A stretch of DNA of 64,000 nucleotides, from positions 36,297,302-36,361,301 of the forward strand of contig OY755251.1 in NCBI GenBank assembly GCA_963576725.1, given 5' to 3'. A model generated the notes under the pieces. It did no database searches. It was given only the letters and a program-made list of their open reading frames with translations, and was not told the origin of the DNA. The DNA is from Azorinus chamasolen (Eukaryota; Mollusca; Bivalvia; Cardiida; Solecurtidae). The translations under genes and the position numbers were made by a program. Below are positions 4,111-63,690 of this stretch, in pieces; position 1 is the stretch's first letter; every line of letters begins with the position of its first letter.

Positions 4111-4304
4111 CGTCAATATTAAAAAAGGATTTAAGCTTACATAACAAGACAGAATGTTTATCAAAGTCTACCCCATCCCCTTATCCTTCCATTTTTGTTC
4201 TTTTTAAGCCATAATAATATGTTCACATTTCAGATTGATGTTACGCATGTGCGTAAGAGCGTATCGCTAGCTACGCCCCTGCATGCTCAATACCTATCAC
4301 CAGT

Positions 4305-5423
4305 ATGGTGTCAACAGAAAACAACACACTGCTACCACTTGACAGTTTTCCACAGTACCGTGTCGGACAATGCATATGGATTTATGGATCTCCTGTCCTT
4401 CTTGTTATTGGAACGGTCGGAAACTTTCTGTCGATACTCGTCCTCCTTCGGAAAAGGATGAGGGGTTCCACGACTATGTTTTATCTCACGTGCCTGAGCT
4501 TCGGGGACCTCCTCTCGTTATACACCGGCTTGTTACGTCATTGGATACGTGCAGCATACGACGTTGACGTAAGAACGTTGTCAGATGCATCGTGTAAGGT
4601 CCACACGTTCCTCGTGTACGTTGCCCTAGACTTTACTGTGTGGACGTTGGTTGCGGTGACGTTTGACAGGTGTTTGTGCGTATCCATGCCTTTTCGCGCA
4701 AAACGAATTTGTACATTAAAGAGATCTAAGTATGTGGTATGCACTATGCTTTCATTAATAATACTGAAAAACATGCATTTCCTGTGGAATTTAGGACTTG
4801 TACATACATGGGAATTTAGGTGCGATGCTGTGTCAGAAGATGTTAATTATTTTTTGCGCTACATATGGCATTGGATAGATTTCTCTACCTTTTGTTTTAT
4901 TCCGTTTACCATTATGATAGTCTGTAATGTGAAAATTATCCATGAAATAGTCGCATCTAAGAGGAAATTGAAGTCGCACAATGGCTTGTATAAGTCGAAT
5001 TCACCAGAAAATATACACACAGAAATATCGGACCCGTCTAGAGTATCTACCATATCACGAGATACTAAATCAAATGGAAAACTTGTGACGTCAAATTCTC
5101 CAAAATCGCAACGTGGAAGGATTTCGTCAATTTCTGTTATGTTATTATTAATAAATGGGATTTTCTTACTGACTACGTCACCGGTGCAAGTGTTTCTGAT
5201 TGGCGAACAGCACTGGTTTTTAGACGATTCTCATTCTCGTGATCGCATTGCATGGCATAATTTCTGGTGGGCCATTGTGAACATGCTACAGTACTTGAAC
5301 AACGCCATACATCTCTTTTTATACTGTCTGACTGGTCCCCGGTTTCGTGACGAGTTGAAGTGCATGTTCAGAAAATTGAACAGGGTTTCAGCAGCGACTG
5401 AACAGTCACAAACAGAAATGTGA
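4305..5423 (+). CDS. Rhodopsin-class (class A) G-protein coupled receptor, peptide-receptor-like
   Basis: A 372-residue plasma-membrane receptor in a single uninterrupted exon. Seven hydrophobic segments lie at about residues 26-48, 58-80, 98-120, 142-163, 190-212, 274-299 and 320-342. Class A marks seen: GN at 39-40 in TM1, SFGDL with the TM2 Asp at 68, Cys97 before TM3 paired with Cys173 in loop 2, a DRC triplet (121-123) in place of DRY, Pro200 in TM5, and a TM7 end NNAIHLFLYC followed by GPRFRDEL of helix 8. The usual CWxP of TM6 is replaced by TTSP, and NPxxY is altered. N6 is a likely glycosylation site. The layout resembles molluscan FMRFamide-receptor-like proteins, but the ligand cannot be told. 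A TTTCAG acceptor-like site at about 4232 could belong to an intron in the 5' untranslated region. The gene converges on the minus-strand ADAMTS gene. Confidence 0.9.
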   Translation: MVSTENNTLLPLDSFPQYRVGQCIWIYGSPVLLVIGTVGNFLSILVLLRKRMRGSTTMFYLTCLSFGDLLSLYTGLLRHWIRAAYDVDVRTLSDASCKVHTFLVYVALDFTVWTLVAVTFDRCLCVSMPFRAKRICTLKRSKYVVCTMLSLIILKNMHFLWNLGLVHTWEFRCDAVSEDVNYFLRYIWHWIDFSTFCFIPFTIMIVCNVKIIHEIVASKRKLKSHNGLYKSNSPENIHTEISDPSRVSTISRDTKSNGKLVTSNSPKSQRGRISSISVMLLLINGIFLLTTSPVQVFLIGEQHWFLDDSHSRDRIAWHNFWWAIVNMLQYLNNAIHLFLYCLTGPRFRDELKCMFRKLNRVSAATEQSQTEM

Positions 5424-28804: not shown

Positions 28805-31800
28805 AAAAAAAGGCTACTGGGGGACTTAAACCTAGTTTACGGGTACCCAACCTCGTCCTTATCCCACTTTCACCAAAGTCAAAATGTAAATAAAATTCCC
28901 CCTCCAGACAACACCACAACATGCATAACGATGTCTGCCAAAATGAAAATGATTTGAAAATAAACGTTACAGGTAAACAAGCGACGTCATCATGTAAATG
29001 GCGTCATAAATTAAAGTACGGGAAAACTGTTTGAAACACTTCTACACCGACATTTAATAAAAGATAAATCGCAAGAAGATACAATTACTAGTGGATATTA
29101 AGCATACACAACTGTTTTGTTTGAAAAAGAATAAACTTGACATCGTAGCCATGTACTCGGTGACTATTCAGGTCAGAGCAGCTGTGGAGAAGTCATTTGG
29201 GGTACGACAGAACTGGCAAAATACAAATATCTAATTTCCTCCCCCCGTAAACGGGTTTCAGAGGGAATCTTCATAGAGTATTAAGACTTTTCCGTCGTCG
29301 CACATGCAAAGAGGAACGCATAATGACCAACTGTAAAGGGGTCGACCACCAAGCATGTAGTGTGCTGCAATATAGAGGGGTCATATCCTTTTTTAATGAA
29401 TTGTTTTATACGTTTGACAAACAAAGTATCAAAATATGTGTGTCCAATAATTTTTCGAAGTTTGTAAATGACATCACCGTAAAACTCCGGATGTGAAATA
29501 CCTAACTTTAGAAAAGTACGTAAATTACAATTGTATTTGCTGATGAGTAGAATATTACGGTGGTAAAATTTTGAAAATGTTTTACGAAGTTTGTCATATC
29601 TGTAGCCCTGTTTTGGTAGTTTTTCAGTGATAATAAGGTTACGATTGTTAAAATCATCAACAGAGGAACAAGCTCTAGCAAAACGAATAAGCTGAGAAAT
29701 GTATACACCGTAACATGTAGCTCGGGGAACATCCCCATCCAAATGAGGATAGTTAACTATTTTAAAATTAAAGTCATCCCTTTTGTCATAAATTCCAGAA
29801 GAAATTGTTCCATTGTTTATAGATAAATTTAAATCTAAAAAGGCTGCAGATATGTCAGAACTATTTGCTTTATTAAGCTTGAGCTCCCTAGGGTAAATTG
29901 AGGTTATCATAGAATCAAAGTATGGGTTATCAATATTAAAAATGTCGTCTAAATAACGTGCTGTATTGTTAAAGGCATTAATGACATCCGCCTGTGAATC
30001 GCTGTTAAGGTTAAGCATAAAATCCCGTTCATAACAAAACAAAAACAAGTCTGCAATTAAAGGAGCACAATTGGTTCCCATGGGAATACCAATGACCTGG
30101 CGATAAACAGAATTACCAAAACGAACAAATATATTGTCTAACAGAAACGTAATAGCGTCACAAAGATCTAAACATGTCCATGAGGTATATTTATTTGTAA
30201 CGTCATTGGTAAAGAACGCATGTCTAGAATTACAGGCAATAAATTATACTTTTTCTCTGGCAAATGTTTTATTTATAAGATTAGTAAGTTTGATCTTAAT
30301 TAGATCGTGTGGTAATGTGGTATAAAGTGTAGAAAAATCATAGGTGCTTATAGTGTTAGCTTGGTGTTGCTTGATTTTTAATTTAGTTAAAACCTCATTG
30401 GAGTTTTTTATAGACCAAAAAAGGTTAATTCCTGATTTCTCATAAGCTTTATCGCAGTAACGCTTGACATGTTCTTTGACCGCTGTTAGACACGATGTAA
30501 TTAGTTTGGATAGTGCAGTTGTTGTGCACGAGACAGAATTTGCTATGAAGCGTGATTTATATGGCGTTTTATGGAGTTTAGGTATCCAGTACATCGTTGG
30601 AAGTTTCTGATGTGTGATTAATATATCAGCATTGAACTGTTTACATTTATTAACATGTTCAGATATTATGTCGTTTCAGACTTAGAGACCACAATATATG
30701 ACTTTGTCTTTGTTAGTTCTTGTTCTAAAACATCCACATAATAAAGTCGTCAAACGATAATTACATTGTTTGACGCTTTATCAGCTGGGACAAACACGTA
30801 TTTAGAGTGAAATTATTGTATACTATTTTTTAATAAGCGAACTGAAGTCTTAGGTTTAGGCGGAAGAAGGTGAATGTTAGATTTGTAAAACGCGATACGT
30901 GTATCCATTATATTTGAAATTTGTTTTATCCATTTTGTAAGGGCACTATTGTCTGCATGTTCTCGGCGACACCATTTTACACTGAAGTCTAACAAAGATT
31001 CTATAATTTTGCTACGGCAGATTTCGAAATCTATCAAAGAAGGTAGTCTGTATTTAGGTCCCTTAGTTAGTAAAGTACGGAGACGTTTGTTTTCGATAAT
31101 GTCAAAATTGCCTGTAATAACATGACCAGCCTCGGCGTAACAGAACTTAGAAGAATTACAATTTCAACTAACAGGATTACTATTTACAATATTAAGGTCC
31201 GATACAATTTTATTGTAATTAAAAATAGTATTCCTGATAGGTATTTTGTACTTATAGCAGATAATTGGAGATTCTAAGTTTTTGAAATAGGCTGGGATGG
31301 TATTAATTACGTTTTTATCGCGAAATATAGATTGTAGATCGATAAAATCTATACCTTTATCAACAAAAGGAATTTTCAAAAAATATCTTTTATGGGCAGA
31401 CACTGAATCAACGTGTGGTCGAAGAACATGCCGAGTGTAGTTCTGAATGAAAGAAGCTGTATTATATAAAGGATCTGTTCGTAAGATCACTTTGTCTGCT
31501 TCTATGTCAATGTCTCTTATAGAAGAAATAACGTAAGTAACACCCTCTGTAAGGGGAGAAATAACAATATCGATTGTATGTACGGGGAGACGTTTTACGA
31601 CCGCCACACGGCACACACAACACTATTGTGCCATGCCTTACATTTGTAAACAGTTCGAATCCAGACACGAGTAAATCGGCGTCTCGTCAGGATCCAAACA
31701 ATTTGACACTCTATCAATATTTTATCAAAAGCTTGATCTAATCGGACGTAGTCAAAATGACAACCGAGCCAAATTTGTGCACATGTTTTGTTTTGTTTTT

Positions 31801-40800: not shown

Positions 40801-43800
40801 TGAATATGCAGTATACGAAATATTTCCTATATCCTAGAAGATGGTAGCTTAGTTTCTATTTCTTAGCAGATGGTAGCTTAAAGCAGGCTGAAAATAAAGC
40901 AGAATGCCCCTAAAGGTACATTCTGCTTTACTTTCAACCTTAAGTGGTCACCTGTCTCCGTGACTCAAAACAGGCGTTTCTTATAACTCTTTATCAGGAA
41001 AAACATACTTAAATAAGTTAATCCTTTCACTTAGAGATTTCATGAACACATTTGAACCCTCAACATTGAAATGGACAATTCCAGTTTCTAATTAGTCAAG
41101 CTAGTCCATTTCAGATTCTTTGAATAGTACACTGCAAACTGACAAACATTGCATATACGGCTGATCAGAGGGTTCGTATATGTAAACATGGTGAGAAAAA
41201 TATGCAGCCAGACTGGGACTCGAACCCGGGACCCCTCGCTTACAGGGCGAGTGCTCTCCCGACTGAGCTACCAGACCGCTTACACAAATCTCTCACCATT
41301 TCATCATAAACTCAATCCGGCTACACAGACCACTTGTACACAAGCTACAATTTATCTTATTTAATCTCCTATAGGTTATTTACGTTTGGTGTAAAATGTC
41401 AACGGGTGTTCTTATAAAGAAACATACCCGCTAAGACCCAGGATCGAACCCGGGTCGCCAGGTTCGCAGTCATGCACTCTACCACGTCGCCATAAAACGC
41501 GCTTTGACAGCAAGCCGTACAAGTGATGATAAACCTACACAATATGACATACTCTCCCAGCAAGTTGAAATTCGTCCCGACTTTCTATGGGTATGAGGAC
41601 GACTGAAAATCGAATTCGGAGCACAAACAGGCGCAGTCAGATCTGGAATCGAACCCGGAACCTCTCGCTTACAGGGCGAGAGCTCTCCCGGTTGAACTAC
41701 CGGCACTCTGAGTACCTATATTGGCCAATGTAATGAAAGACGGATTGGGTAATATCATCTAATATGTGCGAACTTGAATTGCCCGACTGTCGAAATTACC
41801 CGGCTTTACTCTAGATCTAGTCTACATTGTCTGCATGGGACAAATATACTCTTCACATATAGATCTACACAGTTTGTAAATGGCATAGATCTATACACAA
41901 GTCACTAGACTGAAAGTAAAGCAGAATGCTCCTTTCGGAGCATTTTCTTCTGTATAGTCAGAGTCTGCTTGGCGCCTTTAAAATTGTTTAACGGTGCGTT
42001 AGTACATATATCCTAGGCAAAAGAGACCCACGTTCATTGAAAAAAAAAAGTGCGAAAATGCAACGGTTCATTTTCGCATTCTAATTTTCGGGGCTCCAAT
42101 GTATAAGCCGTAAATTATACAACGAAATCGGTTTAAAAAAGGCGAAATTACCAGTTAGTGCCAAATAAGATTTTCGCATTTTTTTCAACACATGTTCGAC
42201 TAAGGGCATCCAAAAAAAAAAGTACGAAAATGCAACATCGATTTTCGCATTCTAATTTCGAGGGTCAGCTGTAGGAAATCACATAGAATTGCGTTGGCGC
42301 TGGGGGTGCTCGGCACTAAAAAAAAGTGCGAAAATCGACATTGCATTTTCGTACTTTTTTTTCTCTGTTGAAAAAAGTCGAAAATCGAAGGTACTAACAG
42401 GATTCCGTAGTTTTCTTTACAGCAACCGTCAATTAAAAATCAGGCTAATGCCCACCACCCATAAATACGCCTCCCATAATTAGTCCTATCAGACGATATA
42501 ATGACGTTTTGCTTTCATATATTGACCGATTGGTTCCATACATAGACGAGTGGTTTCATACAAACATTTTATCGTTACATACATCGTACATATGGTCCCA
42601 TACACTGAAAGTTGGTTCAATATATTACCTTTTGGTTCAATATAAACACATTTTGCTTTCATATAAGCGTAAAATGAACATATATATTGGTAAAGTGGCT
42701 CCATATAAATATACTTTGGTTTCATATATTCAAAATCGGTAACATGCACTGTCCGTTTGGTTTTATATAAATACAGTACCATTTAATACCTTGCTGTTTC
42801 GGTTCAATATAACTGTATTTCCCTTCCATATATAGCAGTTTGGTTCAATATCAGTACATTTTCTAATCATATACTGTTAATATGAACCCATATAATGCTA
42901 ACGTGGTTAAATATGAATGTTGTTTGGTTTCATACATTTAAATGTGAAGTCATTCATTGTTATATTGGTACCATATAAGCACATAACCAATTCATATTTT
43001 ATCGGTATGAACCTATACATTGTCATTTTAGTTCCATATAGCATAGTTTCTGATCCATATATGTCATTATGAATCTATATATTGCATTTTGGTTCTATAT
43101 ATTAGTGTTCTCGTTCTATATATATGTAGTTTGGTTTCATATATTGTAATTTCGAACCTATACACTACTATAGTGGTTTCATATATACATAGATTGGTTA
43201 CATATATTGTAAGTTGGTGTCATATATTGCTAAAATGAAGTTATATATTGAAAATATGATTCTATATATTACCATGTTGGTTCGATAATACGAAAACTGC
43301 CCATATAAGACAGCTACGGCTTTCCATAATGCAGAATAATAAGTAGATTGTGACACGGCACAGCATTACCCCCGTCCCTCAGGAATTGGTCCCCAATTTG
43401 GCAAGATTCAAAAGCGAAAGTAGACATGTGATCGTTACCGGAAGTGAATTTTTAAACTGGGAAAAAGAGCATGGCCGTTGTCACAATTTACAATGTGAAC
43501 TGGTAATTTGCAATATATCATAGAACTGTTAAGATTTCATCTATCCTAGCATGACACACAGGTTAATGCATGTTCAGTCTTTCAATTTGCTTTGATTATG
43601 ATGACTGACAACAATTTAACGATGAGCACGGTGATAGAAAAATCACATTGATTGGCAAAACTTACTGCAGATAATTCAAATTTCGTCCTCTGTCTAAGTT
43701 TTGGAAACAAAATAATACATTAGCATTTAGTTTTACCTAAATGCAATTCTTAATATTACATCCAATCAAACTTATTTTGTTTTAACCATCTATCAGTTCA

Positions 43801-46800
43801 TAAGTTCTGATCCATTCTTCTTTCCATCATTAATTAGCCTACAATGCTAAAAAGATAAAGTCAGACAACTTATGTTAAACTTGTGCTCTGTACCTTAACA
43901 TGTTTTCAACAACTAATTTGTAAGAAACATCTCTTAAACAAAACAATAACAAGTTATTCAACTTGTCTTAGTCTTAACAATGCGATTTATCAAAATTCAT
44001 GAATTCAATAAAATATATACACATCAACACATATACTTGTTTGGCCTACAAACAACCTCTGTTTATCTTATTAATAAGAAAACAACATCTGTATATCTTA
44101 TTAAGAAGACACTGAAAAAGATTTTCTATCATCAATTTAACTCCATTGATATCCAAATCTTTTGAAAATTTAGTAGCTATAAGCTATATGGAGACAATGG
44201 TACTCCAAACCTCGGTATTATCTCTGTCACTAGGGCTTGTGCTACAGTTTCTGCTTCAATATTGGGTAAAGGTAAAGCTTCAACCCACTTTGTAAAATAG
44301 TCTACAACTACCATCAGATACTTATTTCCATTATCACTCTTTGGAAGTGGTCCTACTATATCTATAGCTATTCGCTCCCACCTGGCACCTACTTGATACT
44401 GTTTCATTGGAGCTTTCATCTTTTTCTTAGGAGATTTTTGAGCTGAACATTTACTACATTTTCTACACCATCTCTCTACATCACTCCTAAGCCTATACCA
44501 AAAGAATCTCTTCCTAATCTTGCTCAGAGTTTTCTAGGTCCTAGGTGACCACCTCCTACATTGTCATGAAGTTGTTGTAGAACAAAGTCTTTTAGGACTA
44601 CTGGTAATACTATTTGTAATTCTACACTATCTACACAGGCATTTTCCCATTTCCTGTATAAAACATCATTCTCTACCACAAGAGATTCCGACCTGTACCA
44701 ATAATACTTCACATCTGCACATAAATGTGAAACATCAGACCACTCTGGTCTGTGTCCTATGTCAAACCAACTTCTTACAATTCGAAGAACTGGGTCGTTC
44801 TTCTGCATTAGACCTAACTCTGTAAGGTCTAAATTCTCAATATCTATTGTACTGTCCAGGGTATGTGGTAAGTTGTTGTCCCTGTGCAAATCTACTGGTG
44901 TTTGAGAACAGTCTATAGATGTACTTGGTGTTTCAGTGTTATCTGTCATTGTCTGACCTGCGTAACAGTATTTTGAAGTTTCTAGTGAACTCTCATATGA
45001 AACAGAATTTATATCAAAGTTAGATTTGACCACAGTTAAACTCTGAATCTTAGGCTCTAAACTATTACTGTTAACACATGCAGTATCGAAACCTACTGAA
45101 ATAGTTTCTATATCATCTGTAGCCTCCTTCATATGTCTGGTTTTCTGATTATCAACTAAACTAGATTTGATCTAACCTCATTGAAATTCTGACCATTATC
45201 AATTTTCAATACAGATTTTCTGTCAGAGCTTATGGAACTGACCTCAGTGAATTTCTGCTTGGAAATTTTACCACAATCTAAAGTACTACATACAGATATT
45301 CTACTATTCCCTGACTCTACTGCTCTCTGATACAAGACATACAGTGAATATAGTAATGCTAATATAACAGGATATTTGAGTACAGTAATGAAACCGACCA
45401 ACATTATCAGCATGACTATTGCACTATCAGTATGTTTCTGTTTTCTTTTTCTTGTCTGATATTCAATTGAAATTGAATCTCTACTTAATTTGTCATCGTT
45501 TGGTTTGATAACCACCTTACTGTCTTTTTGCCTATCTGTTTTGTCATCATGTACTGAAACAGATGCAACATTCTCAACCTCAGAATTCATCTTTTCTGAG
45601 ACGAAGACTTTATCTCTGGGATAAGATGTCTGTTTATCAACATATCCGTTTTCATAACGAGTCTCTACTCGTTCACAATATGAACATTTTTTGTCATAAC
45701 ATGGTCTGCGACTCAAAGCGTCACAGTTTGAATGCAATCTGCCAGGTCTATGAACTATTTCAAAATCATAATTTGACAATATATTAATCCATCTACACAA
45801 CTGACCTTCAGCTATCTTGAAATTTGTTAACCACCTTAAGCTGGCGTGGCCTGTTTGAATTTTGAATTTTCTACCATACAGATAGTGATGAAAGTGCTGC
45901 ACAGACAACACTATAGCATTGAGTTCTTTTCTCGTCACACAATAGCCTCTCTCTGCCTTTGAAAAACACTTTGAAAAGTAAGCAATGACCTTTTCTTGAC
46001 CATTCTGTATCTGTGATAAAACACTATCACAAGCAACATCACTGGCATCAGTACTCAAAATAAAATCACCATCTTGAGTAGGGTATGCTAGAATTGGACT
46101 AGAAACTAATGCCTTTTTCAAAGCCTGAAAAGCCTTTTCACATTCGTCTGACCAGATGAACTAATCTGTGTCGTCTGTACAAGTACCCAGAAATATTTCT
46201 AATTTCTCTTCCCTTCAACCTTTTGTTCGTTTAAAACAACTTAATCTTCAGTCGGCATCATCTTCTCACATACCATCTCTTTCTATTAATAAATGTTTTT
46301 TCAATGGACCAAGAGTTGTACTTTCACCTTTAAAATCTGTTATCCAAATTGTTTCTTCTATTCATTCGTAAACGGTCCTTATGCAGGCGACACAGAGTGT
46401 ATCCAATTATCCAAAAGTGCTTTGCTAAGAGGTGCATATGTTCTTGTAATTCCACTATAAAATCTACAGTTAATGGTAGAACATTTAATGTCAAGATAAA
46501 CTCAGACGTTGATTGTACTACTACTAACGTTATTTATGTTTTAACTTGAAACGCGCCTAGTTGTGGTATACAGTACGTAGGACAAACAGGACGTGCTTTG
46601 AAAACTCGATTTCGTGAGCATGCATATCAGTGTCGAAATCGTAAACTAAACAATTTTTAATACCAACACTTTCGGAAATCTGGCCATTCTTTTAAAGATG
46701 TTTTAGTACAAATTGTTGAGCATATAACATATGATAAGGAGGCGACTAGCAGCTTTAAATCGAAAGCTAGATTTATATCTGAATTAAATTGGATCAAAAA

Positions 46801-49800
46801 ATTGATATCCGGTTCCGGTTAGTGGCGAGTGTCAGGGAGAAATGCTCTGGTAGGAAACTGCGTTTACATGTGTAGAAATTGAGAATTGGATTAATATTTT
46901 TGGATGTGGACTCTTAGTGAGGTACCGTTTTGATATCTGCAGATTTGGAAAATGGAAATTGTGTCTGCATAAAGAGATACTTGGTGGACTATACGTAAAC
47001 CATTGTCTTTTCTGTAAATATATGTAAGTGTGAGCTGTTTTTGCTAAGCGCAATTGTCGAAGTTAACACTAGCTGAACTGTTAACGGTACCCAAGGGTCA
47101 TACCCGATCTTTCCGGTAACCGCCTCAGGGCACAGACGGCGCTCAATTATCTTGGCGGTCGTGCTTGTATCCGCGGACATGCCGGGATATGCCGGAGAAT
47201 CTGCACGAAAGGATCCGAAATCTGTAGTGAACGACAAACTGCTACGGATGAAATCGGAGATGGGCGACTCTCTCTTTAACTGCGATGATGCTGACTCGTC
47301 CTTCCTGTCGGGAACTCAGGATTCGCAAATTCTTCCTGGGCAGCGGTTTTTTCAAGACCTGGACACGGACTTGAAGGGCTTGCTTAGGAACCTGTTCGTC
47401 AGAGAACTTCAGCAGTTGTGCAACTCTGACTGCAAAAGGTTGACACTGTACAGAGAGCATCTGCATTCAATCGCTTGCGGGATGCCCGATTATCCCAACC
47501 GGAAACTGTTGTGTAGGAAGAACTCGCAGAAAAGTAAAAAGGCAGAGAAATACGCACATGACTGTTATATAATACGCCAATTTATCCAAGGCAAGCGGTC
47601 GGGCGAAATTTACGATATTTTCTGCTCTGGTGGGGCTAACGACTCGGTAATTGAAATCCCGGATGATCTCCGATTAACGCAAGATAGTGGCAAGGATCAG
47701 AGGCTTGTCTCTCCCGATGGTTACGCAATGCTCACGCAGTTGAGTAAGGATGTTGCAGACATGAAAAGGAGATACTGATGATTCAAAGTGTGACATCGAA
47801 AATAGAGTCAATTGAGAGAACTCAGTCGCGTATCATGTCATCAGTGAATGGTTTGAGGGCTAACCAGCCAACGTGTGACGTTGAGGCAAAGCTGAACTCC
47901 ATCGAAATGAGTGTAAAGTCAGTTATTCCGGAATTAGACAACGTGCGCCGTACTACATTTGATATTTTGGAAGGATGTGGTACAAGAGGCAGACGGTCAG
48001 GAGAATCATTTCGTCATGACGGTGATATGCCCGAAAATCGGTGCTTAGGTTCACTAGACAAACGGTCAGAAGAGCCATTTCGTCATGACAGTGATATACC
48101 GAATAACCAGTGCTTGGTTACGGTATCGTTAGGGAAATCTGCTGGTGATCAGTCAAGTATATCGCAGGCGGTAGCTGGCGCCGCTATGGAGCACTGTATC
48201 CCCTCAGCAGGAAGTGGTGACGGGAAACCGGCTTCAGGCGGCACGCACGCAAATGGGAGTGCAAATTCCGGACATACTGGCAGCCGGTTTGAGAATGACG
48301 GCACAAGCAGTACCCGAAGCAGACCAGGCAATTTCAAAAGCTACGCTGAAGCTGCCATGTCACAGCAAGGCGGTCCGTCTGTGTGGAATGGCGGTCTTCA
48401 ACGCAGCAAGTCACCCTCTCCGGCGTCTCAGAGAATGTCATGTGATGTGAGCACCGACCCCGACGGGGACAGGGACGGGGACTTTGTTTCGGTCACCCAC
48501 AGGAGGCAGGCGGTTTATCATGTGAGCAATATAGACCCAGGCGTATCATATGACGACATTTATGGCTACCTAAACGACAGACATGTAAAATATAGGCAGA
48601 TAAGGATATTTTATCATAGTGTTAAATCAGCCTCTGCGAAAGTCGTGGTTCCAGCTAATCAGGCTGATGCGGTTGAACGGGAGGGGTTTTGGCCGCGTAA
48701 AATGGTAGTTCGGAAATGGAAGAGTAAGACAGAGTGGGTGAAAGAGATTAGCGAAAGGCGACCGGGGAATCAGGTAGACCATGTGAGCAATTTTAGGTCG
48801 TACGATGAGTCCGGTTATACCGGCGATATCCGAAACGGGTTTTAATAGACCGCACCGTCAGAACCGTCGAGGTTACGAGTACCGGCGCGAACGTTACAGG
48901 CCCCGCTATGGTGATAGAAATTCTCAGTACTCTCAGCACTTTGATTCGAGGCGCAAGGACCATGATGCTGACTGTAAGTCGGACGTTTGTCGCGAAAGTG
49001 GCAGGAACCTATCTGATCAGCCAAACGTTTGGGCGGACAGTAATGGGGATGATTGGGACAATACTGATATAGGGTTTTAGTTACTTATTATGAAAGTACG
49101 CGATCACTTTAAAATACCGCTGATTCCTCTTGAAATGGATACCTTGATAAAGCTAACGCTTTTATGTTGGAATGTGAGAGGCATAATGTCGTCTGCTTAC
49201 TCGCTGTCGAACTTATTAGACGACAAACGTGTTGATATTGCGCTGATAATGGAGCACAAGCTTTTTCCATGCTCGAGACAGTTTCTCAGCAGTATTCACT
49301 CGGAATTTGATTATGTTTCAGTCGAAAATTGCCCTGCAAATATATACCAAAGGTCAACCTGTGGTAAAGGCGGGGTGGCGATAATGTACCGTAAAGAGAC
49401 AGCCCCTTTTATCACTCCGGTTGACACTTTTGGGAACAAGAGGGTTGTAGGGGTCGAAATGCGCAATGTCACAAGCGTCCCTTTATTCATATGTGCTGCC
49501 TACATGCCGTCTGAAAATGATCTGGACTTGTATCGGGAAACCCTTAGCGAATTACAAGCATTCGTTAACTTTTATGGCAAGAATGGTCATGTAATTGTAG
49601 GGGGTGACTTTAACGGGAAGCTTCTTGAACGTGGAATCGCGGGCAACCGGAAATCGGAAGCACTGAAAGAGTTTGTTGAAGTGCTATCTCTTGTACCCAC
49701 ACATCTTATAGATGGGGCTAAAGGACCCGATTATACATTTATCCCATGCAAATCTAGACTTGACTATGTGTTTGCGAACATTGACTTAATGCCATACGTC

Positions 49801-52800
49801 ACCGACTTTGAAACGGTCTCCGATTCGGATATACACACATCGGATCATTTGCCACAGATAATATCGCTTGATCTCCCTGACGCCGGTGTATCTCCGAGCG
49901 TAGGAAATGGCGCGAATGTTCGAACAGTTGCTTGGAATAAAGCTACTGACGGACATAAAAGTAGGTACCAAACTGAACTGACACAGCGTCTTCCGGTCTT
50001 TGACGTCACGCAAGATGATCCGAATTGTATATCCGATATAATTACGTCCAGTATTCCGTATAGTAACTTTAACACGCACACAAAGCCGTATTGGAACGCC
50101 GAGATTAAGTTTAAGCATACACTCTCTAGACGTATGCGTCGCTTATGGATAAGCGAAGGACGTCCAAGAGGTCGAGAGTATGAGTCTTACGTCAACTACA
50201 AGGCGGCAAAATCGGAATTTCGTAAGATTCAAAGAATCGAATCTGATAGATATATTGACAAAATTAATCACGACTTAGATGAAGCCGCTGGACTTGATTA
50301 CCGGCTTTTCTGGAAATTGCTTAGAAATCGCAAATCGAAAGCATCAAGTAATATCTCTAGCTTAGTGTTTGATGATGAGGAATTTAAAGACGGTAAAGTC
50401 GCCGAAGGGTTTGCCGAATATTTTAAAGGTGTGTTTAATTTTAAAGGTAACGGACTAAATTCTAAATTTGAGAGTGAGGTGAGAAATTTCCTTCGAAAAT
50501 TCAGGACGGCTACGCCGAGTTCGAATGCCTTAGTCGATGATATACAGGAGATAGAAGTAGAGCAGTGCATAAAACGTCTGAAATGCCGGAAAGCACCCGG
50601 ACAAGACTCCGTGTTGGGTGAGCATATTATCTATGGTGGTCCCGCAATCGTTACTGCCATTACGACACTTTTCAATAGTATACTGTACCACGAGGTCATC
50701 CCTCATGTTTGGAAGACAAGCCTCGTTGTCCCTATTTATAAAAATCATGGCAAACCTAGAGATTGTCCTTCTAGTTATCGCCCCGTTTCGTTAATCCCCT
50801 GTCTTTCTAAAATGTTTGATCGCATTCTTGTCGATAGACTTAATAAGCATCTTTTGCTCACATCCCAAGTGTTTCCCAGCAGGCAGCAACAGGGTTTCCA
50901 GGAAAATTTGAGTTGCATTACCACGGCCTTCAGCCTACAGGAAACCATACATCATAACCTCGAGCAAAATAGCAATGTTTACGTGGCTCAGTTAGATATT
51001 AAAGGGGCATTTGATACGGTCTGGCACGACGCATTATTCTATAAATTAGGATTGCTAGGTGTTCGAGGTAAGCCATTAAGGATAATGCAAGAGTCGTACA
51101 GAAATCTGAAATGCAGGATTAAGGTCAATGGGGTGACGTCTAATGCGGTTGACGTCAACCGCGGCGTCCGTCAGGGCGGCTAGGCGTCGACTTTCCTGTA
51201 TATGGTCTTCATAAATGACCTTTTATGTCAGTTAACAGAAAGTAAAGAGGGTGCGTGCGTTGACAGTCTGAAATGCAGCTGTCCGACCCTGGCCGATGAT
51301 GTCACGCTTGTCGCTATCAGTCCAGAACATTTACAGTCATTACTGAACACTGTTTACGAATATGCCTCAAAGTTTAGGTTTGAAATAAACACATCAAAGT
51401 CTTGTGTGATGACATTTTCAAATAAAAGGAAAGACATCCCGCTTACGGCACGTTTGGTGAACAGTGTTTAGTGCATGTAAATACGGCAACACATCTTGGA
51501 ATGAAACTTTCAAGCAACCTTAAATGTGAATTGAAAATTGCAGCCCGATGTCAAAAGGGGAAAAAAACTCATTCCATGCTATGATTGGGCTTGGTATGCA
51601 TCCTAAGGGTTTAAATCCACTCACATCTGTAAGCTTGTATAAAAAGGTAGTATTGCCGTGCATTTTGTATGGTTCAGAGCTCTGGAATGATATGACACTG
51701 AAAGATCGGGACACACTTAGTCAAACCCAGCACTATATTACAAAGTGTATTCAAGGTTTTTCTAGACTCACGAGATCGGATATTGCCGAATCAATGCTAG
51801 GTGTTTATAGAATCATATCTGAAGTCGAGAAACGGAAACTCATGTTTTTGCATAAAATTATTTCTCTTCCCAAAGGTCACCTCGTGAAAGATATCTTCAT
51901 GAGACGATACTACAACTTTTTACAAGCCCCCGAAGTGGTTAAAAGGGGATTTGTTCCGGATATCATAAAGATTGTATCTAAATATAAGTTATCGGCAATT
52001 TTAAATGACTACGTCTTATATTCGGAGCTTCCTTCTAAAGGAGTATGGAAACACAGGTTAAATAAAGTAATCCGCGAGTCTGAACATCTGCTGTGGGTAG
52101 ATCGACTGAACAGAGACAGGGACTTTGACAGATTTAAGCATGTACATAAAAGTATACAGCCTGCTCATATATGGTAAATCCCGGCTAATCGAAGTGAATT
52201 GAGACTTGCGCATCTTATTTCTGACATTTGGGTGACACGCCCAAATAATATATTGACAGTATGTAGACATTGTGAGCAGATCTATACAGACACATACCGA
52301 CATATAACATCGGAATGCTTGCTCACGTATGGCAAAAGAGAAGAGTTCACCGGGTTTGCAGAAGTCTGTTTCGGGATCGAACTCGATAAGCTTAACTCTG
52401 AATCATTTCTGGAAACCATTGTTGGCGCGTCCTTAAACGAGATCCCAGCAGATGAAAATTGGTACAGCTTTGTAATCTGCGCATTTCATTTTGTCCAAGA
52501 CTGTATGGACATGCACTACAGAATGCTACTTGAAATGGATAAGTGACTGTTGTAAGTCCTATGTCGCCTTAATTCATTCCACAATGACATAAGTGTATGT
52601 GAAGTCCATATTGTAGAATGTACAGCATACATTTTTAATACGATGTGGTTATAAACAGATGGTGCATGTTACTAGTTCATGACTGGGTGAATGGAACACT
52701 ACATGCTTAATGTGTGAGTAACTGATTATTTATTTTTTTTCACCGAAAATGTTATTAAGCTGCATAATTATGTTAACAGTGATTCTAATTTGTACAGCAC

Positions 52801-55800
52801 CCATGGAACTGACGTCGGCTTACGCAAAATATGACACTTCTGCGGACGGCATATAGGATCGTCATGCACAATTTTATATTTAAGCTTTCCCATACAGCTA
52901 TCTGGACCGTTAAAACGAATGTTAAGACGAAATGTAAAAGCCGTCGTTGATTCTTTGTTAAAATGCTTATAAATGCGATAGTGCCAATTTCGGCCTGGTA
53001 TAGTGTCCAACGTAAAATACCCAGTACTCGTACTTACAATCTGGATAAGGTCCACGGATATATTGTTCTCCCGCTCTGTTTCGTTTCGAGAGTGGGTTAT
53101 ATAAATATATATATAAATATATAACTGTGGATCTATATATGAGGGTACAAGGTTTAGTGACTGTAGCTGACGATTTACATGTTTGCATTTACAGAATGAC
53201 TTATCTTTCTATGTTTTACACATTTCCAAACTCTTTCCTAAACATACCGATGGTTGTAGGCGAGACTGTGTGAGGTTCATATGAATATGCATATATGCAT
53301 TTCGTACAGTTTTGCATGCAGAGTTTGACGTCTGGAAAGACAAAGTGGAAGTGTAGGTTATATGTGTACGTTGTGACAACAGACGATAGAAAGAAAACTG
53401 TGCCGACCAATGCTAATAGCAAAATTAATATCGGTCTATGTGGCATGAATATTTAGTTATAGCTTGGCCTACACAAACTCTTAATTGTATATATATTGTG
53501 TATGTTTGTATTATTGTTCGTTACCTGAACGCTTTACTTCTATATTCCTTCATACTGTTCTGTTTGTATGTAATCTCCACTGGGAGGAAATAAAGATACT
53601 GAACTGAACTGAACTGATCACATGGCATTCGCAAAAATGGTAATATTAAACGAAAATCTCGTTTGAAAATGACTCTTCTTGATCTACATACTTTACGCCT
53701 AACTTCGGGTAAACATGCCATGCTTTCTAGACTTTCCTCCTTATCTATATGTTTATTAAAAGAAATTGACGAGCAAGCCGATAAAATTATTTTTAGATCA
53801 GATCCCCTCATAGGAACGGCTAGTTTGATACAAAGCTTTACTCTACATGTTCTCAGACCGCACATTGACAAATTATCTGAACACCAAAGATTCTTCTTGA
53901 ACATTCCTTTTATTAATAAAGGTATTGATTTTATTGACCTCCAAAGTATTTTTAGAGACAAAAATGTAATTGACACTATTCCTAAATACTTTAAAAATAC
54001 AGAACCACCTATCATCTGCTACAAATATAACAAACCCATCAGAAATACAATTTTCAACTATAATAAAATTGTGGCCGACCTTAATATTAATGATAATATT
54101 CCTGATAATTGAGATTGCGCCACCTCAAAATTGTGCTATTCTCCGGCTGGTCATGTGATTACTGGTAATTTTGAGATAATTAAAGATAAACGTCTACGAT
54201 CTCTTTTGAATAAAGGTCCCAAATATAGAATACCATCCTTGATAGATTTTAACTCTTGTCGAGTTCAGATTGCGGAGGCTTTACAAAATTTTAGTATCAA
54301 ATGGTGTCGAAGAGAACATGTTGAGTTTAATGCTCTTTCTTGTTGGAAAAAACTAATTTTTGATATAATTGATAAACGCATTTCCTTTTACAGCTCTAAT
54401 AAACTCCTTCTTCCACCTAAACCGAGAACTTCTTTTAGACATCTTAAAAAGGGTTTACAGGATTTCCATTCAAAATACGTTTTTGTTCCTGCTGATAAGG
54501 CATCAAATAATGTGATTATTATTTGACGATTACATTATATCGATGTCTTGAAGCAGGAAATTATTAATACCAAGTCATACATTTCAGTTACCACTGACGA
54601 AAAGACCATCATTTCAGACCATGTCAAAAAGTGTGAACAATTTGGAACCGATATTAAAATTACACAACATAAACTTCCTACAATGTATTGGTTACCAAAA
54701 CTACATAAAAAACATATAAAGCGCGTTTCATTGCAAATTCTAGTTCATGTACAACTACTAAATTGTCTATACTTTTGACTTCTTGTTTAACGAAGGTAAA
54801 GGAACATGTAAAATTCTACTGTGATAAGACTTATGAAAATTCTGGAATAAATCTCTTCTGGTCTATTAAGAACTCTTCAGAAGTCTTAAACAAACTTAAG
54901 AACAAAATGTATCTTGCATCCACTGTAAGCACGTACGATTTTTCTACTCTGTACACAACTCTTCCTCATATTTTAATTAAGGATAAGCTTACTAACTTGA
55001 TCCAGAAAGTATTTCCCCGGGAAAAAAAAACATCATTCTTGGCATGTAATGCTGAAAAAGCTTTCTTTACTGACGAGCAAATGAAATATTACACCAATTG
55101 GACTTGCTCAGAAGTTTGCGAAGCACTAACTTTTCTTTTGGATAACATATTTGTACGTTATGGGAATGCTATATACCGTCAGGTAATTGGTATTCCTATG
55201 GGTACGAATTGTGCACCACTTGTCGCAGATTTGTTTTTGTACTGCTATGAGAGAGATTTCATGTTGAGTTTGAATCCTCAATCACAAGAAGATGTTATAA
55301 AAGCCTTCAATGAAACTTGTCGATATTTGGATGATATTTTTAACTTAGATAACCCTTTCTTCGATGCTCTGATTCCTACAATTTATCCTAAAGAACTCAA
55401 ATTGAATAAAGCTAACCCGTCCGACAATTGTGCAGCGTTTCTTGACCTAGACCTTAAAATTAATAATGGAATGATTTCTTCTAAAATATATGACAAAAGA
55501 GATGATTTTGATTTTAATATTGTAAATTTTCCTCATCTTGACGGGGATGTTCCCCGTGCTCCATCTTACGGGGTTTATATATCTCAACTTATTCGTTTTG
55601 CTAGAGCTTGTTCATCTATTGACGATTTTAAAAGTCGAAATCTCATTTTAACTGAAAAACTGCTTAAGCAAGGATATAGATACCATAAACTAAGAACAAC
55701 TTTCTCTAAATTTTACTATCGAAATCTCTCGCTTATTGGCAAGTACAAATGTAATTTCAAGGTGCTTCTGCGACACGGTATTTCACATCCTGAATTTTAT

Positions 55801-58800
55801 GGTGATGTGATTTACAAACTTCGTAAAATTATTGGACATACCCATTTTCTCACTTTGTTCATCAAATATATAAAACAATTCATTAAAAAGGGATATGATC
55901 CTGTAGTACTACAACATACTGCATGTTTGGTTGTGAACCCTTTTACAGTTGGCAATCACGCTGGCCTCTTTGCATGTACGCCGACAAGAAAGGTTTAGTA
56001 CTCTATGAAGGCGACCTCTTAAATCCAGAAATGGAAGGAGAACGTCGGATATCTGTACTATTTCATTTTTGTCGTACCCTTTATTACTTTTCTACAGTTA
56101 CTCTGTTTGCAGCTCAATCATTGAGTACGCTAGCGATAGGTGGATACAGTATGTTCACTTAAATGTGTTTTTGTTATACATGCACTTTACCACTGTATTT
56201 GCTGTCGCGGTTGTTGTAGATTAGTCGGAGAGGGGATACGTTTATTTACATTGTTTGTCTTTTAGGATGGGGATGGAATAAGTGTGAGGTTGGGCGCCCA
56301 TAAACCGGTTTAACCCCCGGTGACTTCTGTCACTGACCGTTCCAAGGCGGTACTTCCATCTTCCTCCTATTGTATGTTTGTTTTGTCTTTGTGCGTCTCT
56401 TGTTGTTTTTTCTACTTATGTACATTTGCTGTTTCCTTGTGTTGCTGTTCGGGCGAGTGTTTGTTCTGTATGTGGTGTTTCCTGCATGACTCATTTTTGT
56501 ACTTTTGGTACCTTTTTCTGACAGTCGGTGCAACGGTTTGGCTATGGTTGCAAAATCTTTAATGTATTTTCGATAGAATGACAATAAACCAATAAAACTT
56601 CTAACATCCTTAACACGTCTAGGAGTAGGCCAATCTGTGACAGCTTGAATTTTCTCTGGACAAGTGGAAGTACCATTTTCACTAACGACATGACCTAAGA
56701 ATGTAACTTCTTTCTGCAAAAGATTACACTTTTTAGGGTGTAACTTTAAATTGGCTTCTTTCAACCTCTGAAACACAGTTTTCAAGTTTTCTATGGCTTC
56801 CTCAAAAGTTTTTCCTATGACAATAATTTCATCCAAATACAGAACAAGGGTTTTCCATATTAGACCAGAAAATACTAGTTGCATGAGTCTTGTGAAAACA
56901 GAGGGACTTGTACAAATTCCAAAGGGTAGCTTGCAAAACTGATAGTGTCTACCACCTGCTAAACTAAATGCAGTTTTGGGTCTGCTTGCTGGATCAACAT
57001 TTACTTGCCAAAAACCTGATCTTAAATCTAAATTTGAAAAAAACTTTGATCCAGATAATGCATCCAAATTATCATCTATTCTAGGTAAAGACTGGTATTC
57101 TTTTATTGACACTTGGTTAAGCTTACGGTAATCGCAACAAAATCTGACAGAACCATCTGGTTTTGTGACCAAAAGGACAGGTGATAACCATGGAGAACAT
57201 GCAGGCTCAATAATTCCTCCTTTTAACATTTCATCAATTTCTTTTTCTGCCACGTCTCTCTTTGCCAAGGGAATGCGATAAGGATATGTTTTAATGGGCG
57301 GATGATCTCCAGTGTCAATGGAATGTGAAACCAAATTTGTCCCAACCAATATCTAGCTTAGAAGAAGAAAAGACGCTCTGATTCTCGATTAACAAAGTTT
57401 TCAACTTCTGATTCTGGTCAGGTTCTAGATTTTCAGAGGCACGTCTGAATAAGTCTTGCATATGTTCTGGCAAATTATCTGTTTTGTCTGTTTTCATTTC
57501 TGTTTTGACTGAAGAAACAGGCTCAGATGTTGGTACTGATACACACTCATAGACAGCTGTAACTGTGTTTTCATATATTTTACAAGGTTCCTTCTTAAGA
57601 TTTGCAATTCTAATAGGAAATGTCCCACTGGTAGGATAGGAGTCCAGTTTTCTCTTCAAATTTTGAATTTGGTTCTAAAATTCCTAAGTAATCATTATCA
57701 ATAGGATCCATAGGTTTTCCAGGCACAATCATTTCTGATTCTGCAGGTATTATAACAGTTTCAGAAACAGCTATTCTACAACACGTGTACTCAGCATTGC
57801 TAGATTTGTGAAAGCATGGAATTCTTTCACCATGTAGAGCAATATAGCCTTTGCTCAACATAATATCACATTTATTTTGCATAAGAAAATCTAAGCCTAA
57901 TATTCCACCTTGATTTATATCTGCTATCAAAAACTCGTGGGTTATTTTCTGTCTACCTATACCAATTTCTATTTGTGTTTTCCCATCAAAAGGAGTTGAC
58001 TCTCCTGTAACTGTCACTAAAGATGATTGTACTGGAAAAATAGTTGGCCTACTTGAATATGGTAATTTTTTTACTGTTTCTCTATTTAGAATTGATACAT
58101 TTGCACCTGAGTCTACTAAAAATGTCACTTGATTTTGGAGAATGTTTGTTGATACAAAGTATCCATTTTCAGACCCTAGGTTGTTTAGTGCAATCTGGGA
58201 CCGACTTGATTTGTCAAACCCTGGTCCCTTTGGTTTGACCTTTGAAAGTTTCCCTGACTTATATTTCTATTTTGAGGCTCAGTTCTCTGATTGAACCTAT
58301 GCTGATAGTCTGGATGGTTCTGGTAATTATTGCGACCTAATCTTTGTACAGGTCTATAATTCTGTCTGCCCATAAACTGGTTTCTGTTTTGGTAATTATT
58401 TCCAAATGTTCTGTTATCAGACCTGTTTTCATAGTACCTATTTTCTCTTGGATTTCTGTTGTTTCTATGAAATTGGTGTTTGTTTTGTGTGAAGCCTTGT
58501 GGTGCAACATTTTGATTTTGTGTGTGTCTTGAAGTATCTTGTTCCTTATATGGACTCTCATTTCTCAAGTTCTGATCAATGTTAGTTACCTACTAATTTT
58601 GTTCTTTGTCTGTCAGCTAATCTGTGAGCTTCCATTTTCACAGCCATCTTTTCTGCTTCAAAGATGGTTTTGGGACCATTTTCTCTCAATCTAAGCCTAA
58701 TTTCTGAATCTGTCAATGCATCTATAAAATTATCAAGAGCCAGAGTTTCTACTACATCTTGAGTCCCAGTTGGATATGCCAATCTGGTCATTTTTCTAAT

Positions 58801-61800
58801 TGATTGTGCCAATTCAGGAATTGTCTCCCCTTTGTTTCTAACCCTAGTTTTTAACTGAATTCTGTATACCTCTGCTTTGTTTTCTGTACCAAATCTTGCT
58901 TTTAATTTCTCAACCAATGAATCAAAGTCACGCCTTTCTCTCTCATTTATTTCACTGAGCAGTGACCTTGCTTCATTTGTAAGTGAGCTGGCTAGGTACA
59001 ATGCTTTCTCTTTATATCCCCATCCATTAATTTCTGCTGTAATCTCGTATTGAGTTAAGAAATCATCTAAATCTTCATTTCCACTGTAAGACTGTGGTTT
59101 CATTTTCAATGAATTATGTTTATTTGAGTTTGCTGGATGCATAAAGTTTTGTGCCAAGCATGGCTCCATTTGCATGCATGTATTCTTGTTAAAGTTTGAA
59201 TCATTAATATCTATTGGGGTTTGACTACATTCCCCAGTTCTCAATTCACTATTTTCATTTCTGTTGAAGTTGAATTGAATTTCAGGATCAGGATTTTGAA
59301 TTTGACTTATTCGGGATTTTACTTTATGCATCTCTACCTCTAAATTTCCAATTTTCGTCTGAAATTGGGTATTTAAATCCAGAATTGTGTTTGATAACAC
59401 ATTCAAACTTTGTGTCATTTCCTTAATTTGTGTATTTGTACAACCATTTTCTTGATTTTTATTCAGATGATGATTTTGTGTACCATACTGATGGTCCATA
59501 TTTTCATTTTCTACCTCAATATTATTTCCCTCAATGGATGATGACTGATTTTCTCTAAGTTTACTATAGTTTTGCATATTACCATCCATGTTTCAATAAT
59601 GTACTATTTTCTTTCAATGAAAATTACTGTTTAAGAAAATTTAAACTTTGTTATAAAAAAAAATATTTTCTATTTTCAGATACAAGCCGTTACTTCAAGT
59701 AGATCTATATCTACTAACCCAGAATCACAGTGACCACTCTACAGCAGTTTCTATTTATATTTCTGTTAACATGTTAACAATTGTCTTTGTTAAATAAACA
59801 ATTATGTGATGTATTCTGCATTAAAAAGATATGATCTAGATCATCATTATCATCCCACTTCTGACACCATTATGTTGTGCCCCCACAGGCGTTATCTCAG
59901 TTTTCAACATTTGTCAGGATGCTGGACCTGAGGGACATCAACACACAATTATGCTAGATCAGGATCTAGCTTAAATAATAATTGTGGGCTCGCTCTGAGA
60001 TCTTATTTCAGAGATTTAAGGCATGAAATAAAAGACAAAGTTTCAAATATCAGTCATATTAGTTTGTATTTGAATAATTCTTCAATAATCCTAAACTCTA
60101 ATTATTACAATTCTATAAAAACAACAATCTCATTAAAATACAGATCTAGATTCTACTGTGTCAATTGTATTTGTCATCTTTTCTATCCCAAACTATTGTT
60201 CTGACACCTTAATACATATTAAGAGCTGAAATTACTGTATTGAAGAGTTGACCGAATCTGGTAATATTTACCGGATCTGGTAAAATTACAATTTGACCGG
60301 ATCTGGTAAAATATTAAAAATGACAATATTTATGATTTTACGCAACAGTTTTCATATGCAATTTAGTAAAAGGTGATATTTACTCATAAACACACATTTG
60401 GAAGCTGAACTGACGGTATTAAAGTGTTTGACCGAATCTGGTGATATTTACCGGATCTGGTAAAATTACAATTTGACCGGATCTGGTAAAATATTCAAAA
60501 TCACAATAAATAAGGTTTTATGTGACCTTTTGTATATGTAGCCTATTATAAACTAATATCTATTGAAAAGTATGTTCACCTGCAGTCTAGATTTGCTCTA
60601 TAACAAAATATAGTGTTTTGGTAGTTTCACCGGATTGGGTAAAAGTACAAGAGTTTGACCGGATCCGGTAAAGGTGCTGATAACCGCTTTAAATGTAGAG
60701 TGAGTTTGTGATTCTGGATAAATTATGACTGGTTATATATTCCTATATCATTTTGGGTAAAAATACCCCAAGGTTCCTATTCATTGCGAACAGTTTTCAA
60801 TTGACCGAATCCGGTCGACCTTTCTCTAAGTGAGTCACTCGGAACACCTCGGCTATTTCTATCGAAATAATACCTCGGATATAACACGGGGGGAAGAAGT
60901 AGTCCCGTCCAACATGGCGGACAGTGTAAACATCGTTAGCTATGTAACTGCACTTGATCCGACAATACATACAATACACAGGGGCAGGAGAAATATACAA
61001 TCTGAAACTGGTTAGTATAGGAAAAGATATTCTACAGAGCACAACGAAAGAAACAAACAAGTACGTGCTACATAGTAGTTCTTGTTTATTTACAGTCTGT
61101 AGCACAAAACCAGACAACTCACCAAGTACTGATATACTGTACTTCATCAACAACATTAGGTTAGGCTCTGTGATGTGTCTTGATCTCAATTTCTCAACAG
61201 CTTGCGAATAGCTAGAGTATGAAGAGTTTCTATATCATTTTGGGTAAAAATACCTCAAGGTTCCTATTCATTGCGAACAGTTTTCAATTGACCGAATCCG
61301 GTCGACCTTTCTCTAAGTGAGTAACAGACATACTAGTGACGTTCCGTCAGAATGGGCCGCCTTTTATACCCATCTTGACGTGACGTCATCAAAACAACAA
61401 GCAAAGTGCACGTAGCGTTGTCGAAAGAACATCAGCTTTTACATGGAAAATAGAGCGAGTTGAGACATTTCAAGTGAGTTATAGATTCTATGAGACTTAT
61501 ATAAACCATAACTATCGAATTCTCAACAACAAATAGCGAAATGACGCTAAAATATGACTTTGTAAAAACCGGAAGTCAAGATCGAAAATTACGGGAAAGT
61601 TTGCGTGGAGCGAACGATTCTACGTGACAGTTGCCGAAATCTAGGTGGTACAGGATTCGATATCATTTAAAAGGTATATATATCGATACGATATGCAGAA
61701 TAATAAGTAGATTGTGACACGGCACAGCAATACTATATTCTAATTTGTCATCACTAGTATTGTCTGTGTTGGTCTTATTCCTTGTTAATTATCATTCCTG

Positions 61801-63484: not shown

Positions 63485-63690
63485 GTTTTTAAACCGGTTA
63501 AAACCCACAGTGACACTTGTCACTGACCGTTCCAAGGACGTACTTTCATATTTGTCTTTGTCATGTCTTTTTGTGTCTCTTTTTGTCTTTTGATAGGCAT
63601 GTACATTTGCTGTTCTTATTTGTCATAGTGATGTACGGGCGACTGTGTGTTTTGTCGTGGTTCCTGTATGAATTTTGACGCGACTAATTT
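63485..63690 (+). mobile_element. Naiad 3'-tail fragment
   Basis: AAACCGGTTAAAACCCACAGTG, CACTGACCGTTCCAAGGACG and TGTACATTTGCTGTTC match the Naiad tail at 56310-56430. Strongly 5'-truncated copy. Confidence 0.75.

What the first reader, a model, noticed from the sequence alone, without database searches (positions are those of the whole stretch)
46349..56055. Naiad retroelement that appears to encode a selenoprotein: three in-frame TGA codons at conserved cysteines plus a SECIS
In one frame (all positions equal modulo 3, even across the LINE) TGA occurs at 46547 (first Cys of the endonuclease CCHH finger), 54110 (first Cys of the CxC linker, TGA-D-C) and 54524 (Cys after NNVIII in the RT). 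Each is a position where the family has Cys. A SECIS-like fold follows the TAG stop by two bases. Established knowledge, from memory: the 2021 description of Naiads by Craig and colleagues reported selenoprotein Naiads in clams and spiders. The assignment of this copy is my inference.
Basis: partly seen in the sequence, partly recalled or inferred. Interest (0 to 1): 0.93.

Follow-up and report, generated by a model that had tools for sequence, protein, structure and literature searches.

The report
Dead jumping gene with selenocysteine codons
This is a broken copy of an animal jumping gene whose enzyme was apparently built with the rare amino acid selenocysteine, a kind already reported in 2021; a second, clearly diverged copy in the same stretch keeps two of the three special codons and the RNA signal that goes with them.

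Summary
TGA lies in frame at 46547, 54110 and 54524, where relatives have Cys, and a SECIS-like hairpin starts inside the TAG stop. The strongest test was not in the finding: a second Naiad-like copy on the minus strand (about 31.5-29.2 kb), 71% identical in DNA, keeps TGA at both RT sites and has a SECIS above Rfam's gathering score at the same place. The copies diverged under coding constraint, and four SECIS pairs changed on both sides. Of 143 listed relatives of the N-terminal RT half, 70 end exactly before the third TGA site and 12 before the second; others show Trp there, as a TGA=Trp gene caller would print. The endonuclease TGA rests on less, as copy B lacks that region. This copy is dead: one TAA, one frameshift, a LINE insertion. 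Equal frame across the LINE is no evidence. Selenoprotein Naiads were reported by Craig et al. 2021 (recalled, not readable here), so this is a new member of a known kind. Added: a map of four recoded sites and the lability of the linker site.

The parts
46161..56505 (+). Naiad-type element, copy A, with a nested LINE; inserted in a Gypsy-type pol gene that runs on the minus strand
   Evidence: Gypsy frames break at ...SEKGTK (right) and resume at FIWSDE (left); 3' end shared with another place up to 56505; ends approximate
46334..46819 (+). GIY-YIG endonuclease fragment with CCHH finger (U...C...H...H)
   Evidence: Pfam PF01541 E 1.7e-5; TAA at 46658 breaks it
46547..46549 (+). TGA at the first Cys of the CCHH finger (EN residue 72 in my numbering)
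   Evidence: C in 6 and W in 2 of 8 proteins aligned there
46810..53617 (+). LINE-type retrotransposon inserted in the Naiad; about 38 Naiad residues are missing around it; left edge approximate
   Evidence: RVT_1 and Exo_endo_phos matches at 49081-51180; comparison with P0123
53618..54711 (+). linker and N-terminal RT part, first reading frame
   Evidence: only stops are TGA 54110 and 54524
54110..54112 (+). TGA at the first Cys of the CxC linker (RT1 residue 165)
   Evidence: TGA also in copy B; 12 of 143 relatives end at residue 164; W at 165 in 34 of 123
54524..54526 (+). TGA at the RT Cys after NNVIII (RT1 residue 303)
   Evidence: TGA also in copy B; 70 of 143 relatives end at residue 302; W at 303 in 24 of 49
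54709..55998 (+). C-terminal RT part after the frameshift, with YLDD motif, ending in TAG 55996-55998
   Evidence: 4869 database relatives, 120 listed
55997..56059 (+). SECIS element of copy A
   Evidence: Rfam SECIS_1 26.0 bits, below gathering 35; fold z -2.36; covariation with copy B
29287..31519 (-). Naiad copy B: linker and RT, no endonuclease found
   Evidence: tblastn; 71% DNA identity to copy A
31164..31166 (-). TGA of copy B at the linker site
30750..30752 (-). TGA of copy B at the RT site
29220..29282 (-). SECIS element of copy B, starting inside its TAA stop (29281-29283)
   Evidence: Rfam SECIS_1 35.6 bits, gathering 35, E 0.0021 for 64 kb

Best explanation
It is a dead copy of a Naiad-type Penelope-like retrotransposon (N-terminal GIY-YIG endonuclease, CxC linker, telomerase-like RT) from a family whose ORF encodes a selenoprotein. 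UGA replaces Cys at the first Cys of the endonuclease CCHH finger, the first Cys of the linker CxC, and an RT Cys. A SECIS that begins inside the stop codon would recruit the host's Sec machinery (SBP2, eEFSec, tRNA-Sec; established knowledge) so that the UGAs upstream are read as selenocysteine, and the protein then acts in target-primed reverse transcription. Shown here: position, conservation and covariation. Inferred: decoding as Sec, and transposition. Why Sec: I think the SECIS allows UGA in place of Cys and selection keeps it at a few metal- or redox-sensitive Cys, since it is found at only a few of the conserved Cys; this last step is inference.
For: Two copies with 71% DNA identity share both RT TGAs and no other internal stop. 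They diverged mainly at third codon positions (161/97/384 differences over 732 codons). SECIS sits at the same place in both, one above the gathering score; 4 of 18 pairs changed on both sides, 91.7% of cells paired against 31-50% when slid. Of 143 listed N-terminal relatives, 70 end at residue 302 and 12 at 164, and no other end position has more than 4. Of 16 conserved Cys columns in linker and RT, Trp appears in 34 of 123 at 165 and 24 of 49 at 303, and in 0 to 2 at each of the other 14. Relatives with Cys at these sites exist (P0248 and P0249 at all three, P0242 at both RT sites), so Cys is the likely older state.
Against: No DNA of the database relatives was available, so their stops and Trp residues are taken as TGA by inference. 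Copy A's SECIS alone is below gathering (26.0 against 35). The fold of copy B's SECIS is hardly better than shuffles (z -0.78, 40 of 200 as good). The shuffle control for covariation is weak with two sequences (24 of 500 as high). At the linker most aligned relatives have Cys (78 of 123) and 11 of 123 have another residue (Ser, Arg, Leu or Glu), which a required Sec would not explain. The endonuclease site has no second DNA copy. No transcript, protein or host Sec machinery was seen. The genome-wide count of copies could not be made.
Confidence: 0.93

Rival explanations
1. Ordinary decay: the element once had Cys codons and the TGAs are random nonsense mutations in a dead copy.
For: The copy is dead: TAA 46658, a frameshift, a LINE insertion. 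TGC or TGT to TGA is a single change.
Against: The same two TGAs are in copy B with no other shared internal stop. Listed relatives break at the same sites, 70 and 12 of 143. A SECIS lies at both stops.
Confidence: 0.03
2. TGA is sense (Trp or Cys) throughout the host's genetic code, or read by simple readthrough without SECIS.
For: Many listed database relatives show Trp at these sites: 34 of 123 and 24 of 49.
Against: Trp is what a code-4 gene caller would print in place of a family Cys. A SECIS is present at both copies. A LINE frame of 700 codons and Gypsy frames of 334 and 340 codons in the same window are open without TGA as sense; this is weak, because those ORFs were chosen as open.
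Confidence: 0.03
3. The TGA at the endonuclease site alone is a chance mutation; only the linker and RT sites were selenocysteine in this lineage.
For: Copy B has no endonuclease match. The same fragment carries a decay stop, TAA 46658.
Against: P0205 and P0244 have Trp at this site. Of 44 database proteins with an endonuclease match, 18 start at EN residues 76-82, just after it, and two read across it, P0186 with Cys and P0205 with Trp; start sites chosen by gene callers are weak evidence.
Confidence: 0.15

Closest known systems
Naiad elements coding for selenoproteins in clams and spiders (Craig, Yushenova, Rodriguez and Arkhipova 2021, doi 10.1093/molbev/msab225)
   Same: Domain order, CCHH endonuclease, CxC linker, in-frame TGA at Cys sites and SECIS, by my recall of the abstract
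   Different: I could not read the paper, so whether this family, its SECIS position or its Sec sites are listed there is not known. Only its reference entry was seen.
Canonical Penelope-like elements (Penelope, Poseidon, Neptune)
   Same: GIY-YIG endonuclease plus telomerase-like RT
   Different: Endonuclease C-terminal in canonical ones (recalled); here it lies before the RT, as in the relatives P0248 and P0249
Telomerase reverse transcriptase
   Different: 12% identity; mobile element with its own endonuclease

Membership tests
Naiad (N-terminal EN+ Penelope-like elements) | GIY-YIG endonuclease before the RT | tested here: met
   GIY-YIG at 46334-46819, RT at 53618-55998 on the same strand inside one insertion; same order in P0248 and P0249
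Naiad (N-terminal EN+ Penelope-like elements) | CCHH motif in the endonuclease (recalled; absent in Chlamys) | tested here: met
   U...C...H...H read by eye in VLTUNAPSCGIQYVGQT...HFRKSGHSF; the first C is TGA
Naiad (N-terminal EN+ Penelope-like elements) | CxC linker between endonuclease and RT (recalled) | tested here: met
   TGA-D-C at 54110; relatives CDC, CEC, CNC
Naiad (N-terminal EN+ Penelope-like elements) | RT related to telomerase | tested here: met
   model of relative P0242: top matches are TERT chains; no window sequence was folded as protein
Naiad (N-terminal EN+ Penelope-like elements) | no hammerhead ribozyme (recalled) | tested here: met
   no hammerhead match among the 2 and 25 matches of the Rfam scans of the window
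Naiad (N-terminal EN+ Penelope-like elements) | place among named Naiads in an RT tree | not tested
   no named Naiad reference sequence was on hand
Naiad (N-terminal EN+ Penelope-like elements) | insertion-in-fingers domain and pseudo-LTRs (recalled) | not tested
   no call addressed them
Selenoprotein gene | in-frame TGA at conserved Cys positions, kept between diverged copies | tested here: met
   2 of 2 RT TGAs shared; the endonuclease site could not be compared because copy B lacks it
Selenoprotein gene | SECIS downstream | tested here: met
   35.6 bits in copy B, above gathering; 26.0 bits in copy A, below it
Selenoprotein gene | selenocysteine actually inserted | not testable with these tools
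   needs a reporter or mass spectrometry

The most novel reading that the evidence does not exclude
Within one Naiad lineage the RT selenocysteine is mostly kept (at least 4 changes among 115 labelled rows) while the linker position flips between Cys and Sec at least 11 times among 125 (tree), so a mobile family with very many copies is a natural replicate experiment on when selenocysteine is kept and when it reverts, run under one shared SECIS that begins inside the stop codon.
Probability: 0.45. Interest if true: 0.6.

Novelty: new member of a known kind. Interest (0 to 1): 0.42.

Why it matters
Selenoproteins are few in most animals (general knowledge); a mobile family whose enzyme needs several selenocysteines ties its spread to the host's selenium supply and machinery. 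Database gene calls appear to cut these proteins at UGA or print Trp, so the family is probably widely misannotated. The many copies with Cys or Sec at the same sites allow a direct test of why Sec is kept. The basic phenomenon is already published (recalled), which limits the surprise.

Tried and rejected
Searches for DNA copies elsewhere: viral contigs gave no relative. Genome contigs gave two short, distant pieces in contigs of bacterial symbiont-type assemblies (L001 and L002); by tblastn neither covers the TGA sites. The whole genome (genome search own) was never reached, eight tries of the same request. So the genome-wide TGA against TAA/TAG count that the finding asks for was not done. 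SECISearch3 was not available; Rfam models were used instead.

Literature: Naiad + selenoprotein + Penelope-like, and Penelope-like elements + selenocysteine, gave 0 papers in the held library. Further listings, none of which I opened for this question: Penelope-like elements + permuted 13 (one of them, PMC11167929, was searched for passages), selenoprotein + retrotransposon + SECIS 18, Naiad + Penelope 4, selenoprotein + transposable element + bivalve 3; one search was too broad (30,197 papers, 5 listed). Papers holding the title phrase of Craig 2021: 9 listed; of three I saw passages from a term search, with 0 occurrences of the selenium terms asked. The Craig paper is not held; its selenoprotein claim is recalled.

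Rejected as evidence: equal frame of the three TGAs across the LINE. Not counted as DNA evidence: Trp in database proteins, which I read as TGA under code 4 but could not check. Absence of internal TGA in neighbouring LINE and Gypsy ORFs is nearly circular, since they were picked stop to stop; I had first leaned on it and raised the rival 'TGA is sense everywhere' from 0.02 to 0.03. Sequence search of the PDB gave only two chance-level hits.

Trees and counts: a first tree used only rows P0121-P0263 with at least 200 residues (117 rows with the two window copies) and gave 7 and 3 changes at the two sites; 31 of its 114 inner branches were well supported. With rows of at least 100 residues out of all 263 proteins (146 rows) it is 11 and 4. 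Rows with a residue other than Cys, Trp or an end at a site were dropped from that site's count. Cys at the RT site is seen in P0001, P0096, P0100, P0101, P0104, P0115 of the first 120. In 4 of those 120 the upstream part did not align and could not be scored. Only listed proteins were used: 120 of 4869, 120 of 403, 30 of 30. Only proteins of 0.55 to 1.75 times the query's length are candidates, so favour split ORFs; one search was run to look for longer ones and found 30, among which P0242 was the only one with Cys at both RT sites and at least 50% identity. End positions are the last aligned residue plus any unaligned tail.
Full report
Observation. In the RT the first frame (53618 to about 54711) has just two stops, TGA 54110 and TGA 54524. 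The rest of the RT is open in another frame, 54709-55998, so there is one frameshift near 54711. The endonuclease piece 46334-46819 matches Pfam GIY-YIG (E 1.7e-5) and has, besides TGA 46547, a TAA at 46658. The LINE between them (RVT_1 and Exo_endo_phos) is a later insertion, and about 38 residues present in relative P0123 between the endonuclease and the RT are missing. The equal frame across it therefore means nothing.

Element and setting. A Gypsy-type pol gene on the minus strand is broken between ...SEKGTK (right, near 56506) and FIWSDE (left, 46160), so the Naiad with its LINE lies at about 46161-56505 inside the Gypsy. An ORF with a GPCR domain (7tm_1) at 4257-5420 fits an animal host. 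The host was not identified; one hit of the long-protein search is named Ruditapes philippinarum (P0255).

Second copy. tblastn of the window with its own RT found copy B on the minus strand, 62-76% identical in protein by segment and 71% in DNA. B has no endonuclease match. Codon by codon, 732 gap-free codons from 53780 on: 255 identical, 276 changed silently and 201 changed the residue or a stop. Differences at codon positions one, two, three are 161, 97, 384, the mark of coding constraint while the copies diverged. Both TGAs of A are TGA in B. The other stops in B (TAA at the codons aligned to 54461 and 55033) are not shared. Of 18 Cys kept in both copies, 9 use the same codon. A chance coincidence of two TGAs among 732 codons is about 4e-6 (a simple combinatorial figure).

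SECIS. In the whole window Rfam SECIS_1 matches twice at E up to 10: 29282-29220 minus, 35.6 bits, above gathering 35, E 0.0021; and 55997-56059 plus, 26.0 bits, below gathering, E 0.94 for 64 kb and 0.01 for 701 bases. Both begin inside the stop codons of the two Naiads. Both keep the AUGA core, an AAA apical stretch and the GA of the 3' core (read by eye). On Rfam's structure, 18 pairs, 4 pairs changed on both sides between the copies and 91.7% of cells pair, against 31 to 50% when the partners are slid. The shuffle control is weak with two rows, 24 of 500 as high. Free folding is better than shuffles for A (z -2.36, 5 of 200 as good) and hardly for B (z -0.78, 40 of 200).

Relatives in the protein database. 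The C-terminal RT query gave 4869 proteins (120 listed). Of those 120, 108 start after site 303; 8 cover it, of which 6 have Cys and 2 Trp; 4 have an unaligned upstream part. The N-terminal query (TGA as Cys) gave 403 (120 listed) and the long-protein search 30, 23 of them new. Over these 143 proteins, 70 end exactly at residue 302, the residue before TGA 54524, and 12 end at 164, before TGA 54110. No other end position is shared by more than 4. The commonest pairs of states at 165 and 303 are Cys/stop 63, Trp/Trp 22, stop/not reached 12, Cys/Cys 11. Proteins with Trp are what a gene caller using TGA=Trp would give. Over the proteins that align well enough, 16 Cys columns of linker and RT are conserved; Trp stands in 34 of 123 at 165 and 24 of 49 at 303, and in 0 to 2 at each of the other 14. 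At 165 another 11 of 123 have Ser, Arg, Leu or Glu. In the endonuclease, P0205 and P0244 have Trp at the site of TGA 46547 (Cys in 6 of 8) and also at a second Cys eleven residues before it (EN 61; Cys in 5 of 7), which is TGT in this window. So the family seems to use at least four recoded sites and this copy three of them.

History. On a quick tree of 146 rows (relatives covering at least 100 residues of the N-terminal RT, and both window copies; site 165 masked), the linker site needs at least 11 changes between Cys and TGA among 125 rows with a known state. The RT site needs at least 4 among 115 (95 TGA, 20 Cys). Five shuffles printed for each gave 35-42 and 19-20. In the smaller tree the nine most distant rows, P0248 and P0249 among them, have Cys at both sites, on a weakly supported branch (67). 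The trees are short searches with many weak branches, and the length limits of the searches favour split ORFs, so the numbers are rough.

Mechanism. Shown: TGA in place of Cys at fixed sites, retention of the two RT sites between diverged copies under coding constraint, and a covarying SECIS. Inferred from established knowledge: the SECIS recruits the host's selenocysteine machinery and the UGAs are decoded as selenocysteine. Inferred: Sec at the CCHH finger and CxC would serve as metal ligand or redox residue. The restriction to few of the conserved Cys argues against pure neutral exchange. The flipping at the linker argues that Sec is not required there.

Verdict. It is a dead member of a kind published in 2021 (recalled, not read). 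What is added is an independent second copy, the overlap of SECIS and stop, the four-site map and the different lability of the sites.

Noticed in passing
window 29174-31519 (minus): A second Naiad copy with both RT TGAs and a SECIS above the Rfam gathering score, not mentioned in the finding.
   Followed up: yes
window 38165-40363 and 59873-61701: Direct repeats 99.6% identical over 1359 bases and 98.7% over 388, with unlike stretches of different length between these two parts, beginning TGTTGTGCCC and ending ATATGCA: probably the two LTRs of the Gypsy element that holds the Naiad. Near-identical LTRs sit oddly with Gypsy, Naiad and LINE frames that are all broken; LTR conversion or movement of an already broken composite could explain it.
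   Followed up: partly
window 25211-25372 and 63490-63671: Stretches 72-77% alike to the last 200 bases of Naiad copy A (56301-56505): possible further Naiad 3' ends without coding parts.
   Followed up: no
window 31900-33200: Array of diverged tandem units of roughly 60-120 bases upstream of copy B, seen by eye in the sequence and in the self-comparison.
   Followed up: no
window 41204-41277 and 41628-41708 (minus): Two tRNA-Thr (TGT) predictions close together; the first passes Rfam's gathering score, the second does not.
   Followed up: no
window 4257-5420 (+): ORF of 388 aa with a rhodopsin-type GPCR domain (7tm_1, E 4e-22), probably a host gene.
   Followed up: no
database proteins P0095, P0103: RT fragments of this family filed under the bacterium Candidatus Thiodiazotropha, which I recall as a clam symbiont; probably host contamination of bacterial assemblies.
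   Followed up: no
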